The notes below the pieces were generated by a model, which had not been told where the DNA came from, searched no databases, and worked only from the letters and a program-made list of their open reading frames with translations. 64,000 nucleotides of DNA from contig NZ_CP031716.1 in assembly GCF_001696605.3 (NCBI RefSeq), positions 992,001 through 1,056,000 of the forward strand, given 5' to 3'. Within the stretch, counting starts at the first letter, position 1. Each line of letters begins with the position of its first letter. Below, in pieces: positions 55,683 through 64,000 of the stretch. The position numbers and the translations under genes were made by a program. This DNA is from Acinetobacter wuhouensis (lineage in GTDB: Bacteria > Pseudomonadota > Gammaproteobacteria > Pseudomonadales > Moraxellaceae).

Positions 55683-58112
55683 TTAATGGCGTGCAGCTTT
55701 TTTGCCTTCATCTACTGCTTTTACAATCGGTGCTTTAACCAAAGGTTTAGGTTGTTCGATTAGTGCAAGTGGAAGAATCTCATCGATACTCTTCACTGCT
55801 TTAATTTCCAAACCATCTTTGACATTCTGAGGAATTTCAGTCAAGTCACGGACGTTTTCTTGTGGGATAAACACAAGTTTAACACCACCACGATGTGCTG
55901 CTAAAAGTTTCTCTTTCAAGCCACCAATACGCATTGCTCGACCACCTAGACTGGTTTCACCTGTCATTGCAATATCAGGACGAATTGCAATTTTAGTGAA
56001 CGCAGAAACAAGGGCTAAAGTCAGTGCTAAACCAGCCGATGGACCATCTTTTGGAGTTGCACCTTCAGGTAAATGCACATGTACATCAGTTTCTTCAAAA
56101 CGTGATGCTTCGATCCCCAACTCATCTGCACGGGTACGAACAACCGTCATTGCAGCAGTAATTGACTCTTTCATCACGTCACCAAGTGAACCTGTGGTAA
56201 TGAATTTACCTTTACCAGGAACAGCAGCAACTTCAATCGTCAATAACTCGCCACCAACAGATGTCCAAGCCAGGCCATTAACACGACCCACTTGCGCTTC
56301 TTCTTCTGCCATACCGTAGTCAAACTTATGAACACCTAAATAATCTGGCAAGTTCTCAGCAGTCACATCAATATGTAAGTTTTTGGCTTTCTTACTAACA
56401 GACTCTTTCACCACTTTACGTGCAATTTTAGACACTTCACGTTCAAGACTACGTACGCCTGCTTCACGCGTATAACGACGCACGATGTCACGAATTGCTT
56501 CTTCATGCACAGTCAGTTCTTTAGCACGTAAACCATTGTTCTTGATTGCTTTCGGAACAAGGTAACGGTCTGCAATATTGACTTTTTCGTCTTCGGTATA
56601 ACCAGGCAGACGAATCACTTCCATACGATCAAGCAATGCTTCAGGAATATTCATGCTGTTTGCAGTACAGATGAACATCACTTCAGACAAGTCAAGATCA
56701 AGATCTAAATAATGATCATTGAACTTATTGTTCTGTGATGGATCAAGTACTTCAAGCAGAGCAGAAGCTGGATCACCACGGTAGTCCTGTGCCATTTTGT
56801 CAATTTCATCGAGTAAGAACAGTGGGTTCTTCACACCGACTTTTGTCAAAGATTGCACGATCTTACCTGGCATCGCACCGATATAGGTACGACGATGACC
56901 ACGAATTTCCGCTTCATCACGTACACCACCGAGTGCCATACGAACGAATTCACGACCTGTTGCTTTGGCAATGGATTCACCGAGTGAAGTTTTACCTACA
57001 CCTGGAGGACCAACTAGACACAAGATTGGACCACGAAGTTTTTTCACGCGTGATTGAACTGCTAAATATTCAACAATACGCTCTTTTACTTCGTCCAAAC
57101 CATAATGGTCTGCATCTAAAATTTCTTGTGCTTTTGCCAAGTTAATGCTGACTTTGCTCGCTTTATTCCAAGGTGTATCTAAAATCACCTCGATATAGTT
57201 ACGAACTACAGCCGCTTCACTTGAAGCAGGTTGCATTGCTTTGAGTTTACGGAATTCAGCTTCTGCTTTTTTACGCACGTGTTCAGGTAAATCAGCTTCT
57301 GCTAAACGCTTTTCAATTTCAGCAACATCATCTTCCGCACCGCCATTCATGTCGGAAAGTTCACGCTGAATCACTTTCATCTTTTCATTGAGGAAGTATT
57401 CGCGTTGATTCTTTTCCATTTGGCGTTTTACAGAATCATGCAAAGTTTGCTCAATCTGTTGTTCTTCAGACTGTTGTAGCAAATAAGTCATGAGTTCTTG
57501 TAAATGTGCTTCAAACTCATCGTGTTCTAAGAATTTTTGTTTTACATCTATATTCAAAGGTACACGCGTTGCAACGAAGAACAATAATTGCAATAAATCA
57601 TCAATTTTATTGGCAGCAGCAATCAATTCACGTGCATTACGTAATTTTGCTTCTGCGTATTGTGAAAATAAGGCACGCAATTCTTCAACACGTGTTGCTT
57701 GCGTATCTTGATCTACAGATACGGTCATCGGGCTCAATGCGTGTTCAGCAGACAGGTATTCATCATTGTCAATGATTTCAACCAGCTTAGAACGATGTAA
57801 GCCTTCAATTAATACTTTTATGCAGTTTTCATCATTCTCATGATTCACAACTTGTACAATCTTAGCGACAGTACCATATTGATATAAATTGTCGTGATCA
57901 ATTTCTTCTGTAAGCGAATCTTTTTGCGCAACTACAAATACTAAATTGTCACTGTTACGAGCCACATCAACTGCATTAATCGATTTTTCACGACCCACAA
58001 ATAACGCAATTTGCATGTGCGGATAAACCACCACATCACGTAGCGCTAAAAGCGGTAATACACTTGGAACCTGTGGCTCTAAGTTTTCTTGATTCATAAT
58101 AATCTCAGACAT
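55683..58112 (-). CDS. lon: ATP-dependent protease Lon
   Basis: 809 residues from ATG 58112, five bases after GGAG; the frame could start two codons earlier at GTG. Cytosolic hexameric AAA+ serine protease degrading damaged and regulatory proteins. N domain starts at LPLLALRDVVVYPHM; Walker A GPPGVGKTS (about 360); sensor region LFLLDEIDKMAQDYRGDPAS; proteolytic Ser in PEGATPKDGPSAGLAL (about 687) with Lys about 40 residues later (GGLKEKLLAAHRGG). A low-scoring sigma32-like pair, CCCTTGTAA and CACATCA (58158-58184, minus strand, 11 bases apart), lies about 50 bases upstream and could give heat induction; the spacing is short. Confidence 0.97.
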   Translation of the reverse strand: MSEIIMNQENLEPQVPSVLPLLALRDVVVYPHMQIALFVGREKSINAVDVARNSDNLVFVVAQKDSLTEEIDHDNLYQYGTVAKIVQVVNHENDENCIKVLIEGLHRSKLVEIIDNDEYLSAEHALSPMTVSVDQDTQATRVEELRALFSQYAEAKLRNARELIAAANKIDDLLQLLFFVATRVPLNIDVKQKFLEHDEFEAHLQELMTYLLQQSEEQQIEQTLHDSVKRQMEKNQREYFLNEKMKVIQRELSDMNGGAEDDVAEIEKRLAEADLPEHVRKKAEAEFRKLKAMQPASSEAAVVRNYIEVILDTPWNKASKVSINLAKAQEILDADHYGLDEVKERIVEYLAVQSRVKKLRGPILCLVGPPGVGKTSLGESIAKATGREFVRMALGGVRDEAEIRGHRRTYIGAMPGKIVQSLTKVGVKNPLFLLDEIDKMAQDYRGDPASALLEVLDPSQNNKFNDHYLDLDLDLSEVMFICTANSMNIPEALLDRMEVIRLPGYTEDEKVNIADRYLVPKAIKNNGLRAKELTVHEEAIRDIVRRYTREAGVRSLEREVSKIARKVVKESVSKKAKNLHIDVTAENLPDYLGVHKFDYGMAEEEAQVGRVNGLAWTSVGGELLTIEVAAVPGKGKFITTGSLGDVMKESITAAMTVVRTRADELGIEASRFEETDVHVHLPEGATPKDGPSAGLALTLALVSAFTKIAIRPDIAMTGETSLGGRAMRIGGLKEKLLAAHRGGVKLVFIPQENVRDLTEIPQNVKDGLEIKAVKSIDEILPLALIEQPKPLVKAPIVKAVDEGKKAARH

Positions 58113-58247
58113 GGGCACTCCTAATGAGTGACAACGGTGTTGCCATGTTTTTTATAGTGATGTGTATTTATAAAATTACAAGGGCTTTGCTTAATAAAAA
58201 AAATAAAAAAACGCAAATGTATGATTAATAAATGAAGCTAGCGGCAC

Positions 58248-58844
58248 TTATTGACTGAAATGACGCTTAAAATGATAAGTTTTAGACGGTGTGATCAATC
58301 CATCTAAAGCTTGATCCCAAGGGTTGCGCTTTAATTCAATGTCTAATTTTTGAAAATCATGTGCTAAACCGAGCCGATATGGACGATGCAAAGCAGAGGC
58401 GAGTGTACGATCATAAAAACCACCGCCCATGCCCATCCGTGCACCTTTATCATCACAGGCAAGTAAAGGCATAACAACAAGATCTAAAATAGAAATATGT
58501 AATCCTCTACTTGCGATTGGTTCAAGCATGCCTAGTGGATGGCGAGAGAACAAGTGATTATGAAATTGATGTTTTGAAACTCTGACCCACCGCAAGGTTT
58601 TATTCATATTACAAATCAAGGGTAAATAAACTTGTTTACCATGTTGAAAACAAAATTCAATGAGAAGTCGTGTTCTGACTTCACCAAAAGCATCTAGATA
58701 AACCCCCACTTTTTTTGCGTACTGTAACTGTGGATGCTTTAAAAACTGTTTAAAGCATTGCTGCTCAATGTTTCTGTGTTGAAGTGGTGTTAATGATCGT
58801 CTTTGCTTTCTGATCATTTTGCGTAATTCAGTGTTTTGATTCAT
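58248..58844 (-). CDS. 5-formyltetrahydrofolate cyclo-ligase family protein
   Basis: 198 residues from ATG 58844; the frame extends 19 codons further, but the family N terminus is MNQNTELRKMIRKQRRSLTP. It shows KQVYLPLICNM (about 91-101), the substrate and ATP-binding region ending in LACDDKGARMGMGGGFYDRT (family signature GMGGGFYDR, about 148-156). The enzyme uses ATP to convert 5-formyl-THF to methenyl-THF. In many gammaproteobacteria the 6S RNA gene lies just before it; I saw no 6S-like sequence here. The upstream flank is the insertion sequence at 59088. Confidence 0.88.
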   Translation of the reverse strand: MNQNTELRKMIRKQRRSLTPLQHRNIEQQCFKQFLKHPQLQYAKKVGVYLDAFGEVRTRLLIEFCFQHGKQVYLPLICNMNKTLRWVRVSKHQFHNHLFSRHPLGMLEPIASRGLHISILDLVVMPLLACDDKGARMGMGGGFYDRTLASALHRPYRLGLAHDFQKLDIELKRNPWDQALDGLITPSKTYHFKRHFSQ

Positions 58845-58901
58845 AAGGTTTGAAGAAAAATAAAACCATATACAGTATACAGGTGAATAATTCTTTTTCA
58901 T

Positions 58902-59087
58902 GGAAATAAGAAATCAGCTCCCTTTTTTAGCCACTTTTATTGAAAGCTGATGACTACATAACCATTCGATTCTATAGATGTGGTTTAAAATCAACTGGAT
59001 AAAATGTTAACTGTATCGCTATCTTGTTTAAATAATGCCTAAAAATAACTTTGTTTGAATTTAAGATAATACTTTTTAAATTAAATA
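58902..59087. other. Short AT-rich region left of the IS5-type element
   Basis: About 190 bases with no coding potential on either strand, ending abruptly at the IS left end. It may be the upstream region of the cyclo-ligase gene or the remains of the original left flank of the adhesin gene. Confidence 0.4.
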
Positions 59088-60126
59088 GGCTTTGTTGCAC
59101 AAAGCTATTCTTGAGGGCTTCTTTAGCAATATAATTTCCAGATGAAGAAGCCTGCACCTAAAACTTACCGTACAACCAATTGGTCCTCGTATAACCAAGC
59201 TTTAATCAAGCGAGGAAATATTTCAATCTGGTTTGATCCTAAGACGCAATGGTATGCACAACCACAAGGCAAGCAAGGACGAAATCAAACTTATTCCGAT
59301 ACAGCGATTCAATGCTGTTTAATGATCAAATCTCTATTCCGTCTTTCTTTACGTATGGTTACTGGCTTTGTTCAAAGCCTGATTAAACTCTGTGGCTTGA
59401 ATTGGACAGCACCAGATTACTCCACCCTTTGTAGACGACAAAAGCATATTGATATTGCGATAAGCTATCAGAAAAGTCATGATGGGTTACACCTACTTGT
59501 CGACTCTACGGGTTTAAAGTTTTTAGGTGAAGGCGAATGGAAGCGTAAAAAACATCAGCCTGAATACCGTCGGCAATGGCGTAAACTGCATATTGGTATA
59601 GATGCTGAAACACTGCAAATACGTGCCGTTCAGCTTACTACAAATAATGTCAGTGATTCACAAGTACTAGGTGATTTACTGGATCAAATTCCACTAGATG
59701 AGCGAATAGATTCTGTCTATACCGATGGCGCGTACGACACGAAGTGCTGCAGAAAAGTGATTTCAGATCGTCAAGCACATGCAGTAATTCCACCCAGAAA
59801 GAATGCCAAGCCCTGGAAAGATTCTAAAATAAGTTCAATAGAACGAAATGAGTTACTTCAAACGGTTAAACATTTAGGCAGAACCCTATGGAAAAAATGG
59901 TCGGGTTATCACCGTCGTAGTTTGGTGGAAACCAAGATGCATTGCATCAAATTATTAGGAGATAAGCTGACGGCAAGACATTTTCAAAGTCAGGTCAATG
60001 AAATTCATGCGCGTGTGGCAGTTCTGAATAGATTTACGGAATTAGGTAGACCTCACACCCAAGTTGTCACTTAAATTTGAATGGATTGGGGAAAACTCAG
60101 CTTTTGAATGTTTATGCAACAAAGCC
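59088..60126 (+). mobile_element. IS5-family (IS903-group) insertion sequence, 1039 bp
   Basis: Inverted ends: GGCTTTGTTGCACAAA at 59088 and, from the right end at 60126, GGCTTTGTTGCATAAA. This is the IS903-group type of end. Flanking 9-mers AATTAAATA (left) and CCTCCAGGT (right) differ, so the expected 9-bp target duplication is absent. Size and ends resemble the Acinetobacter IS17 element (recalled, not compared). The right end abuts the adhesin repeat frame at once. Confidence 0.9.
59142..60074 (+). CDS. IS5/IS903-group transposase
   Basis: 310 residues, intact. The DDE residues are D121 (HLLVDSTGLK), D195 (SVYTDGAYDT) and E263 (RRSLVETKMHCIK), near the classic IS903 spacing. The N-terminal part (YRTTNWSSYNQALIKRGNIS) and CLMIKSLFRLSLRMVTGFVQ are typical of the group. 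It probably transposes by cut-and-paste, normally making 9-bp duplications. Confidence 0.93.
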   Translation: MKKPAPKTYRTTNWSSYNQALIKRGNISIWFDPKTQWYAQPQGKQGRNQTYSDTAIQCCLMIKSLFRLSLRMVTGFVQSLIKLCGLNWTAPDYSTLCRRQKHIDIAISYQKSHDGLHLLVDSTGLKFLGEGEWKRKKHQPEYRRQWRKLHIGIDAETLQIRAVQLTTNNVSDSQVLGDLLDQIPLDERIDSVYTDGAYDTKCCRKVISDRQAHAVIPPRKNAKPWKDSKISSIERNELLQTVKHLGRTLWKKWSGYHRRSLVETKMHCIKLLGDKLTARHFQSQVNEIHARVAVLNRFTELGRPHTQVVT

Positions 60127-62478
60127 CCTCCAGGTGTAAAAATTGAAATTACTACAGACGGTGATATCAAGGTTACATTTGATCCAGATGTAGATCCAAG
60201 CACGATTGATCCAAATACAGACTTTGTGATCACGGGTGAAGATGGCTTACCATTAAAAGATATAGATGGTAATCTAGTGCCTGCTCCATCATGGACTACA
60301 CCAGATGGTGGTATTACGTGGACAGGTAAAGTACCGCCAAATGTCGATGGTGAAGTCACAGTAAAAGTCCCTGCGAAAGACGCTAATGATAATCCAACTT
60401 ACACTGACAAAACAGGCAATCCAGGTACAGGTAATGATGCTACAGTAGCTGTAGATACAACACCTCCAGGTGTAAAAGTAGAAATCACGCCAAACGGTGA
60501 TATCAAGGTTACATTTGATCCAGATGTAGATCCAAGCACGATTGATCCAAATACAGACTTTGTGATCACGGGCGAAGATGGCTTACCATTAAAAGATATA
60601 GATGGTAATCCAGTGGATGCCCCACAATTTGAAACCACAGATGGTGGTATTACGTGGACAGGTAAAGTACCGCCAAATGTCGAAAGTGAAATTAAGGTAG
60701 AAGTACCAGCAGGCACTTACACAGATAAAGTAGGTAACCCTGGTAAGCTTGGTAACTCAAATATTGGTTCTGATGGTCAGCCAGATCCTGAAGGTGAACC
60801 TGTTTTTGTTGATACAGCTCCTCCAGGTGTAAAAGTAGAAATCACGCCAGATGGTAAGATCACAGTAACTTTTGATCCAGATGTAGATACAAATACAATT
60901 AGTTTGGATGATATTCAGGTCACTTTAACTGATGAAAAAGGTGAGCCAATTCTGGATGATGATGGTCGCCCAGTCACTATTCCATTAATAAGTACAGATG
61001 GTGGCATTATTTGGACAGGCGAAGTACCGCCAAATCTCGATGGTATCGTGAAGGTTGAAGTCCCTGAGAATAGCTACAAAGATAAAACAGGCAACCTTGG
61101 TACAGGTGATGACGCTACAGTAGCTGTGGATACAACACCTCCAGGTGTAAAAATTGAAATTACTACAGACGGTGATATCAAGGTTACATTTGATCCAGAT
61201 GTAGATCCAAGCACGATTGATCCAAATACAGACTTTGTGATCACGGGTGAAGATGGCTTACCATTAAAAGATATAGATGGTAATCTAGTGCCTGCTCCAT
61301 CATGGACTACACCAGATGGTGGTATTACGTGGACAGGTAAAGTACCGCCAAATGTCGATGGTGAAGTCACAGTAAAAGTCCCTGCGAAAGACGCTAATGA
61401 TAATCCAATTTACACTGACAAAACAGGCAATCCAGGTACAGGTAATGATGCTACAGTAGCTGTAGATACAACACCTCCAGGTGTAAAAGTAGAAATCACG
61501 CCAGATGGTAAGATCACAGTCACATTTGATCCAGATGTAGATCCAAGCACGATTGATCCAAATACAGACTTTGTGATCACAGATGGAAATGCTGAACCGT
61601 TAAAAGACAAAAATGGCGATCTAGTGCCTGCTCTATCATGGACTACACCAGATGGTGGTATTACGTGGACAGGTAAGATACCGCCAAATGTTGAAAGTGA
61701 AGTTAAGGTTGAAGTACCAGCAGACAGTTACACAGATAAAGTAGGTAACCCTGGTAAGCTTGGTAATTCAAATATTGATTCTGAAGGTCAGCCAGATCCT
61801 GAAGGTGAACCTGTTTTTGTTGACACAGCTCCTCCGAGTGTGAAGGTTGAAATTGGCACAGACGGTAAGATCACTGTAACTTTTGATCCAGATGTTGATC
61901 CAAGCACGATTGACCCGAATACAGACTTTGTGATCACGGGCGAAGATGGCTTACCATTAAAAGATAAAAATGGTAATCCATTTACTTTAGAAAAAACTGA
62001 TGATCCACTGATTTGGACAGGTAAAGTGCCGCCAAATGTCGATGGTGAAGTCACAGTAAAAGTCCCCGAGAATAGCTACAAAGACAAAACAGGCAACTTG
62101 GGTACAGGTGATGACGCTACAGTACCTGTAGATACAACACCTCCAGGTGTAAAAGTAGAAATCACGCCAGATGGTAAGATCACTGTTACATTTGATCCAG
62201 ATGTGGATACAGATACAATTAGCTTAGATGATATTCAGGTCACTTTAACAGATAAAGAAGGCAAGCCAATTCTTGATAAAGAAGGCAAGCCAGTGACTGT
62301 TCCACCACTGACATCAGCAGATGGTGGTATCACTTGGACAGGTAAAGTACCGCCAAATATTGACGGAAAAGTAAACGTAGAGGTGCCTGCGAAAGATGCA
62401 GATGGAAACCCAACCTACACTGACAAAACAGGCAATCCTGGTACAGGTAATGACGCTACAGTAGCTGTAGATACAACT
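60127..62478 (+). repeat. Seven Ig-like coding repeats with a higher-order period of about 1 kb
   Basis: Module starts (at the PP of the linker): 60127, 60463, 60823, 61138, 61474, 61831, 62140, ending 62478; lengths 112, 120, 105, 112, 119, 103 and 113 residues. Modules 1 and 4 differ by a single base over 336 bp. Modules 2 and 5 share a longer linker (VGNPGKLGNSNI, then PDPEGEPVFVDTAPP). Module 3 resembles 7 in its middle (ISLDDIQVTLTD) and 6 at its end. The order therefore repeats every three modules (1011 and 1002 bp). Confidence 0.9.
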
Positions 62479-64000
62479 CCACCGACAGTGACAGTAGAAA
62501 TCGAACCTGAAACGATTAAAACCGTCATTATTTCAGGTGTCACTTCACTTGAACTTGGTGATATTGTGACAAATGGTCAGATTGTTGAAGATAGTCTAAT
62601 AGACAATGGTGATGGTACTTGGACTGTAAAAGTTAAAGTCAATGGTGATCTAGAGATCAAGGAGATTATAGGTCAGCCAGAGGCGACGACAGAGATTAAA
62701 GACAGCGTTATTGTTTCAAATAATAATGGTACAAATAACTCTACAGTGACATTTAAATTCTCAGAAACACTTAAGGATGGCAGTTTTACAGAGGCAGATA
62801 TTAAAGTCACTGGTGGAACTTTAGTTCCAAATAGCCTGAATTATGATCCAGTTACTGATACTTGGACAGCTGAAATCAAGGTAACACTTGGTCAAGAAGT
62901 TACTGTTGAAGTGAGAGATCAGAGCTATGAAGACCTTGCAGGAAATAAAGGATCAGATGGTCATGATGTCTTAGAAACGATCAAAATCACTAGTGTTAAA
63001 CCGACTGAAGATGGTCAAAGCACAGAAATCACTGTGAAAAGCTCTCAGAAACCAGAAGATATTATTTTAATAGTAGATGGTAAGCCTATCAGTATTGTTG
63101 AATGGATAGACAATGGGGATGGTACATATACCTTTAGAACAGAGGGCGATGTTAAGGGGGATAAAATCACAGCGACTACGACTACAACACCAACTGATGA
63201 TCATCCTGATGGTGAGCAGATCTCAGATACAGTGAGCTTACCATTTGTGAGTATTGACACCATTGCATTTGATGATGTGATCAATAAAGCTGAATGGGAA
63301 GATTTAACCCAAGGTGGTGATACGATTACGATCACAGGGAAGATCAGTAACTCTGATCCAGATACACTGACAGTAACTGTGAATGGGGAGACGTATACCT
63401 ATGATAAAAATCTTACTAATAATACAGTCGCAATCAATGGCGATGGTACATGGTCAATTCAAGTGCCTAAAGATTCAATTAAAGACACCAATCATATTAC
63501 AGCAGTAGCAACAGCTGAAGGTGGTAGATCTATATCGAATACAGCTGAAAGTGATCCAATCCGAGATATTAAGCCACCAACAGTGAAAGTTGTAGTAGAT
63601 GAAGACGGTAACATCACTGTTACATTTGACTCAGATGTAGACCGTGATTCGATTAAACCAGAAACTGACATCGTGATCACGGACAAAAACAGTAATCCAC
63701 TCAAAGATAAAGATGGCAAACTAGTTACGATCAAGCTTGAAGCTTCGGAAGATGGTTTGACTTGGACAGGTAAAGTGCCATCAAATGTTGAAGGTGGTGT
63801 AAAAGTTGAGGTTCCTGCACTAGGTGAGGATGGTAAGCCAACGTATACCGACAAAGCAGGTAACCCAGGTGAACCAAATCGTGGTGAGAATGACATCAAT
63901 ATGGTTCCACCGACAGTGACAGTTATTGTAGATAAAGACGGTAACATCACAGTCACCTTTGATCCGGATGTGGATCCAAGTACGATTGATCCAGAAACTG
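60127..64000 (+). CDS. Giant Ig-like-repeat adhesin (Bap-like), 5'-truncated by the IS, running off the window
   Basis: In plus frame 1 there is no stop from 60127 to 64000 (about 1,291 codons). The frame enters from the IS end (open back to 60046) and has no credible start, so this is the interior of a longer gene. The product is a series of beta-rich Ig-like modules of 103-120 residues joined by DTTPPGVKVEI-type linkers. They share KVTFDPDVDPSTIDPNTDF, GGITWTGKVPPNV and YTDKTGNPGTG, and are highly acidic and Asp/Gly/Pro/Thr-rich, suiting calcium-stabilised surface fibres. From about 62500 on the modules are divergent (GDGTWTVKVKVNGD; GDTITITGKISNSDP; then a return to the first type at 63580). 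Large repeat proteins of this kind in Acinetobacter are type I-secreted biofilm adhesins. With the 5' end cut off it may be a pseudogene unless recombination restores it. Confidence 0.88.

What the first reader, a model, noticed from the sequence alone, without database searches (positions are those of the whole stretch)
60127..64000. About 1,291 codons of uninterrupted Ig-like repeats without a start
The plus frame is open to the end of the window. It is easily missed because it has neither a natural start nor a stop here, while several shorter antisense frames look like genes. Full preservation of the frame despite truncation suggests a recent event or continued use in an IS-fused or phase-variable form.
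Basis: seen in the sequence. Interest (0 to 1): 0.7.

Follow-up and report, generated by a model that had tools for sequence, protein, structure and literature searches.

The report
Giant adhesin beheaded by insertion sequence
An Acinetobacter chromosome carries the long tail of a giant, repeat-built surface adhesin whose start was cut away next to a jumping DNA element, most likely a recent and rather ordinary gene loss.

Summary
The plus frame is open from the right end of an IS5-family element (ISAha3-like, 59088-60126) to the window end and beyond: in the genome it runs to a stop 4,217 bases past the window, 2,717 codons from a TTG inside the IS, Ig-like repeats ending in a type I secretion C-terminal domain (TIGR03661). 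Three relatives keep the same gene order (lon, 5-FCL, 139-aa gene, giant adhesin, adeT); in the one tested, the adhesin starts with a BapA_N domain. Here adhesin start, BapA_N and 139-aa gene are missing. This IS copy has no target duplication, while two of its three identical sister copies have perfect 9-bp ones; a deletion beside the IS explains this best. No detached head was found elsewhere in the genome. The intact frame fits a recent event; nothing found supports phase variation or continued use. No type I secretion genes are adjacent; a set lies far away beside another adhesin. IS damage of Bap and Ata adhesins is already reported in A. baumannii. Side result: in 19 genomes the 5-FCL/adeT interval is empty (6) or holds a Bap-like adhesin (3), a trimeric autotransporter (5) or a metal ATPase (5).

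The parts
55683..58118 (-). lon protease gene, left neighbour
   Evidence: ORF; lon 98% identical in A. guillouiae and 95-97% in the three relatives that keep the adhesin
58248..58901 (-). 5-formyltetrahydrofolate cyclo-ligase (5-FCL) gene, last intact gene left of the IS; name recalled, family matched to relatives by sequence
   Evidence: ORF; found in 57 of 58 genomes
58882..59087 (.). left flank of the IS; no match to the four relatives' stretches compared
   Evidence: L077 match ends at window 58881
59088..60126 (+). IS5-family element, ISAha3-like, 1,039 bp, 16-bp terminal inverted repeats 59088-59103 / 60111-60126 (94%), no target duplication
59142..60074 (+). IS5 transposase, 310 aa, same direction as the adhesin frame
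   Evidence: NF033579 409.7 bits (cut-off 140) and Pfam DDE_Tnp_1_5, DDE_Tnp_1
60064..64000 (+). headless giant adhesin frame (continues to L010:12218, that is 4,217 bases past the window; 2,717 codons from TTG 60064)
60127..62478 (+). seven Ig-like units of 103-119 aa; the IS junction falls exactly on a unit boundary; unit 1 (60127-60462) and unit 4 (61138-61473) are identical at 335 of 336 bases
62479..63573 (+). 365-aa stretch of other Ig-like domains, holding the best Big_12 match (aa 872-969 of the ORF)
63574..64000 (+). second run of units of the first kind, going on past the window

Best explanation
The frame is the headless remainder of a Bap-like giant adhesin of the type I secretion kind. 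An ISAha3-like IS5-family element came to lie at the locus, and a deletion starting at one IS end removed the adhesin's promoter, start codon, N-terminal BapA_N domain and an unknown number of repeats, probably with the small gene that stands beside it in relatives. What is left, about 2,700 codons with the C-terminal secretion signal, is most likely an untranslated pseudogene, young enough to have no stop or frameshift yet. Shown: the open frame, its full length, the repeats, the C-terminal domain, the IS and its missing target duplication, the conserved gene order and the absence of the head. Inferred: deletion as the mechanism, its size, its recency, and the lack of expression.
For: Frame and end; TIGR03661 at aa 2639-2715, 26.7 bits over a cut-off of 17.6. 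Same order lon - 5-FCL - 139-aa gene - adhesin - adeT in G179, G109 and G078; BapA_N at the start of the G179 protein (75.1 bits, cut-off 27; NF033677). Nearest intact protein P0002 also carries PF22783. Four full IS copies identical over 1,039 bp; two have perfect 9-bp target duplications, the window copy and the copy beside gyrA have none. Searching the own genome with the whole remaining protein finds only IS ends besides itself, and its three BapA_N domains belong to other genes. If neutral, an intact frame would survive 0.5% divergence with probability 0.02-0.07 under assumed indel rates.
Against: No close relative holding this gene is available: 10 of 175 genus genomes match the last 372 aa at E <= 1e-20, one being the genome itself, and the closest species seen, A. 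guillouiae, has no adhesin there, so the pre-deletion state is known only from relatives with 37-69% identity over matched parts. A still intact 8-kb frame is also what a used gene would show. The whole-protein search missed a weak C-terminal match that one search found, so a very diverged or repeat-free head could have been missed. The 206 bp left of the IS match nothing that was compared.
Confidence: 0.85

Rival explanations
1. The gene is still used in an IS-fused form. The transposase transcript runs on into the adhesin frame, translation starts at TTG 60064 (overlapping the transposase stop) or GTG 60226, and the product leaves by type I secretion through its C-terminal signal. Without BapA_N it would not be held at the surface and would be released.
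For: Transposase and adhesin frame point the same way, TTG 60064 overlaps the transposase stop at 60072-60074, no plus-strand terminator-like site was found between 58800 and 60700, the C-terminal domain is intact, and the genome has an LssB/HlyD/TolC-type set. N-terminal retention of LapA-type adhesins is described in PMC6890996 (passages).
Against: Promoter-like sites are fewer than in shuffles (3 against 6.3) and neither start has a clear ribosome-binding site by eye. The normal promoter and start are gone. Recency explains the open frame without use.
Confidence: 0.08
2. Assembly artefact: two loci were wrongly joined at one of four identical IS copies, and the true gene has its head.
For: Four identical IS copies and long near-identical repeats (335 of 336) invite misjoins; this copy and one other lack target duplications. 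No reads are available here.
Against: Both sides belong together: lon/5-FCL on the left and adhesin/adeT on the right are neighbours in three relatives. Exchanging flanks between the two copies without duplications does not yield matching 9-mers (flanks, compared by eye). The chromosome is one contig of 3.85 Mb. No detached head was found.
Confidence: 0.05
3. Reversible switch: IS excision or inversion turns the adhesin on and off.
For: Inverted IS copies exist elsewhere on the chromosome.
Against: No target duplication at this copy, no detached head near any other copy or elsewhere.
Confidence: 0.02

Closest known systems
Bap / BLP giant adhesins of Acinetobacter (De Gregorio et al. 2015, PMC4647330, passages read)
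   Same: Arrays of 80-110 aa Ig-like modules, shared N-terminal motif in family members, RTX-type C-terminus for type I secretion, variable and dispensable gene, often split or truncated
   Different: Lies in the 5-FCL/adeT interval, is cut by an ISAha3-like element with a deletion of the 5' part, and lacks the N-terminal motif altogether
IS-damaged bap and ata in A. baumannii NCIMB8209 (PMC7392541, passages read)
   Same: Loss of surface adhesin genes with IS copies at the site
   Different: Other elements (ISAba13, ISAba26), another species, and there bap itself could not be detected whereas here about 8 kb remain open
ata/tpgA locus (PMC6363060, passages read)
   Same: Optional adhesin beside 5-FCL and lon, lost in some lineages
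   Different: ata of A. baumannii stands between lon and 5-FCL; this gene stands on the other side of 5-FCL, though trimeric autotransporters occur there too in five other genomes
LapA-type adhesins with an N-terminal retention module (PMC6890996, passages read)
   Same: C-terminal type I secretion signal; LssB-type exporter in the genome
   Different: The N-terminal part is missing; no LapG-type peptidase (PF06035) in 7 of 7 genomes searched, the own included

Membership tests
Bap-like type I secretion adhesin (BapA_N + Ig-like repeats + TIGR03661) | Ig-like repeat array | tested here: met
   Big_12 106.3 bits (cut-off 27), Big_5 99.9 bits (cut-off 23.6); modelled unit is all-beta apart from one short helical turn, pLDDT 85.3; PDB matches are only suggestive, best E 2.0e-3 to S-layer protein SbsC, none at E <= 1e-3
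Bap-like type I secretion adhesin (BapA_N + Ig-like repeats + TIGR03661) | C-terminal type I secretion target domain | tested here: met
   TIGR03661 26.7 bits, cut-off 17.6, aa 2639-2715 of 2717
Bap-like type I secretion adhesin (BapA_N + Ig-like repeats + TIGR03661) | N-terminal BapA_N domain | tested here: not met
   absent from the remaining frame, present in the syntenic gene of G179; so this is a remnant of such a gene, not a complete member
Bap-like type I secretion adhesin (BapA_N + Ig-like repeats + TIGR03661) | type I secretion machinery available in the genome | tested here: met
   LssB-type ABC 841.5 bits and HlyD 341.9 bits over their cut-offs; TolC-family 210.7 bits, just under its 225.15 cut-off; not adjacent
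Bap-like type I secretion adhesin (BapA_N + Ig-like repeats + TIGR03661) | surface location and adhesion | not testable with these tools
   needs protein work
IS5-family element (ISAha3-like) | DDE transposase and terminal inverted repeats | tested here: met
   NF033579 409.7 bits; 16-bp inverted repeats, 94%; 98.8% identical to copies annotated ISAha3 family on Acinetobacter plasmids
IS5-family element (ISAha3-like) | 9-bp target duplication at the insertion | tested here: not met
   met at two of the four full copies, not at the window copy nor the one beside gyrA; read as later deletion, not as another kind of element

The most novel reading that the evidence does not exclude
The beheaded adhesin is a used gene in a new form: transcribed with the transposase and secreted by its intact C-terminal signal but no longer held at the cell surface, so that an IS-made deletion turned an anchored adhesin into a freely released Ig-repeat polymer.
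Probability: 0.07. Interest if true: 0.55.

Novelty: new member of a known kind. Interest (0 to 1): 0.2.

Why it matters
Little as a mechanism: one more adhesin lost beside an insertion sequence. It matters for annotation, because P0001 (2,663 aa) is held as an ordinary protein although its head is missing. More useful is the neighbourhood: in 19 Acinetobacter genomes the 5-FCL/adeT interval is empty or carries one of three unlike cargoes, among them adhesins of two unrelated secretion types, so it looks like an exchange site for surface structures, next door to the published ata site.

Tried and rejected
Rearrangement instead of deletion: if the head had been carried off by recombination between IS copies, flanks of the two copies without target duplications should match crosswise; they do not (by eye), and the region beside the gyrA copy holds no adhesin head. 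The three BapA_N domains of the genome belong to a complete 4,866-aa adhesin, to a 760-aa repeat protein and to a third adhesin with its own, different repeats.

Species name: named relatives came; the neighbours are nearest to A. guillouiae CIP 63.46, but no call names the window's own species. Plasmid matches say only Acinetobacter. The adhesin stretch has no match in the plasmid collection. A first scan of genome contigs with the C-terminal 372 aa found no relative. No Rfam match at the junction.

LapG-type release: no PF06035 in any of 7 genomes searched, so the LapD/LapG switch was dropped. Fold search of one repeat unit gave only weak matches. Three paper searches gave nothing on this gene; from their listings I opened none.

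Limits of what was looked at: of the 9 non-own hits, seven were fetched (not G072, G149). adeT follows the adhesin directly in 4 of these 7 (G179, G109, G078, G155); G081 has other genes between, G022 and G059 have another neighbour. Upstream regions were fetched for six of the seven (G155's contig begins inside the gene); lon and 5-FCL stand there in three (G179, G109, G078), and not in the stretches held for G081, G022 and G059, where the gene fills them. BapA_N was tested by profile only in G179; G078 has nearly the same first residues by eye; in G109 the listed frame begins further in and was not tested.

Full report
What was claimed and what is there. The finding describes about 1,291 codons of open plus frame, 60127-64000, made of Ig-like repeats without start or stop. 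One search shows the frame (60064..63999, open at the 3' end). It is open from 60046, and shuffled sequence of the same make-up never exceeded 203 stop-free codons in 200 shuffles. The window is C8:992001-1056000 of a genome with a 3.85-Mb main contig. In that contig the frame goes on to L010:12218, 4,217 bases beyond the window, 2,717 codons from TTG 60064.

What it encodes. Pfam finds bacterial Ig-like domains (Big_12, Big_5) above cut-off. The DNA holds tandem arrays with periods of 336, 333 and 291 bases; units of 97-119 aa begin with the same motif; eight of them from the window share 32 invariant columns. A model of one unit is well defined (pLDDT 85.3, pTM 0.75), but its matches to solved structures are weak (best E 2.0e-3, none at 1e-3), so 'Ig-like' rests on the profiles. 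The last 77 residues or so are a type I secretion target domain (TIGR03661, 26.7 bits over 17.6). Unit 1 and unit 4 differ at 1 of 336 bases, a sign of recent duplication inside the gene.

The element at the left. 59088-60126 is a 1,039-bp IS5-family element with 16-bp inverted ends and a transposase of NF033579, 98.8% like copies labelled ISAha3 family on Acinetobacter plasmids. The genome has four full copies, identical in sequence. Two have perfect 9-bp target duplications; the window copy and the one at C8:2672230, beside gyrA, have none. The junction falls exactly at the start of a repeat unit; with six occurrences of that 15-base start in the gene this may be chance or a target preference.

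What is missing. The G179 adhesin begins with BapA_N, and the nearest complete protein in the large collection, P0002 of Acinetobacter sp. YH12145, 4,105 aa, also has it. In the window genome the 139-aa gene, the adhesin start and BapA_N are absent between 5-FCL and the first repeat. By comparison with G179 at least roughly 0.9 kb is gone (my estimate from the coordinates); the true size is unknown because the number of lost repeats is unknown. A search with the whole remaining protein finds only IS ends elsewhere in the genome. That search missed a weak C-terminal match seen, so its reach is limited; but the three BapA_N places found by profile each belong to another gene.

How it came about. 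A simple insertion would leave target duplications and the head on the other side of the IS. Neither is seen. Exchange between IS copies would leave crosswise matching flanks; by eye it did not. A deletion starting at an IS end fits all of this. I cannot tell whether the IS first sat in the adhesin or in front of it; the 206 bp left of it match nothing compared. The identical IS copies and the unbroken 8-kb frame point to a recent event: if neutral, the chance of no stop or frameshift is about 0.45-0.59 at 0.1% divergence and 0.02-0.07 at 0.5%, assuming 5-10 indels per 100 substitutions (stop-making changes are 799 of 24,264).

Does it still work? The transposase runs in the same direction and no plus-strand terminator-like site lies between 58800 and 60700, but promoter-like sites are fewer than in shuffles. 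TTG 60064 overlaps the transposase stop and GTG 60226 lies in the first unit; neither has a clear ribosome-binding site by eye. If it were made, it could leave by type I secretion, and without its N-terminus it might be released, by analogy with LapA, whose N-terminal module holds it in the outer membrane (PMC6890996, passages). The genome has an LssB-type exporter, HlyD and a TolC-family protein (the last just under its cut-off) at C8:3.698-3.703 Mb beside a 1,299-aa adhesin, none of it near this gene. I hold a pseudogene to be much likelier.

Known context. Passages of PMC4647330 describe Bap as a highly variable, dispensable gene, often split or truncated; passages of PMC7392541 report IS copies in place of bap and inside ata in one A. 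baumannii strain; passages of PMC6363060 place ata between lon and 5-FCL and report its joint loss with tpgA. So the kind of event is known; this instance, element and site are, as far as searches show, not described, which is weak evidence because the library is partial.

Side result. The interval is empty (331-739 bp) in 6, holds the Bap-like adhesin with the 139-aa gene in 3, a trimeric autotransporter frame in 5 and a metal ATPase in 5. One member of each filled class was tested by profile; the others were assigned by their first residues or position. The window genome is a twentieth case. A. guillouiae, the closest species by its neighbours (92-98% for most of those aligned, lower for a few, e.g. 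5-FCL 69%), is empty there, so the adhesin was either gained in the window's lineage or lost in the other.

Noticed in passing
5-FCL/adeT interval; L049, L060, L070-L072, L076, L077, L079, L080, L082, L086, L087, L092, L093, L096, L100, L102, L107-L109, L112: The same chromosomal interval is empty or holds one of three unlike cargoes (Bap-like adhesin, trimeric autotransporter with an OmpA/BamE partner, metal P-type ATPase) in 19 Acinetobacter genomes.
   Followed up: partly
L044:5052-5657 (C8:1549051): Another giant adhesin gene of this genome is split: its BapA_N part ends in a stop just after a short run of A, and the repeats go on in another frame. Slippage, true loss or a sequencing error cannot be told apart here.
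   Followed up: no
L006 / L014, C8:2672230-2673268: A second copy of the same IS, beside gyrA, also lacks a target duplication, which suggests another IS-side deletion.
   Followed up: no
L045:2197-16797: A complete 4,866-aa adhesin with BapA_N and dozens of near-identical repeat blocks stands elsewhere in the genome.
   Followed up: no
L055, L057: In these two relatives a trimeric autotransporter partner gene and long adhesin frame lie on the lon side of 5-FCL, as published for ata, whereas in five others the adhesin lies on the adeT side.
   Followed up: no
window 60127-60462 and 61138-61473: Two repeat units are identical at 335 of 336 bases.
   Followed up: yes
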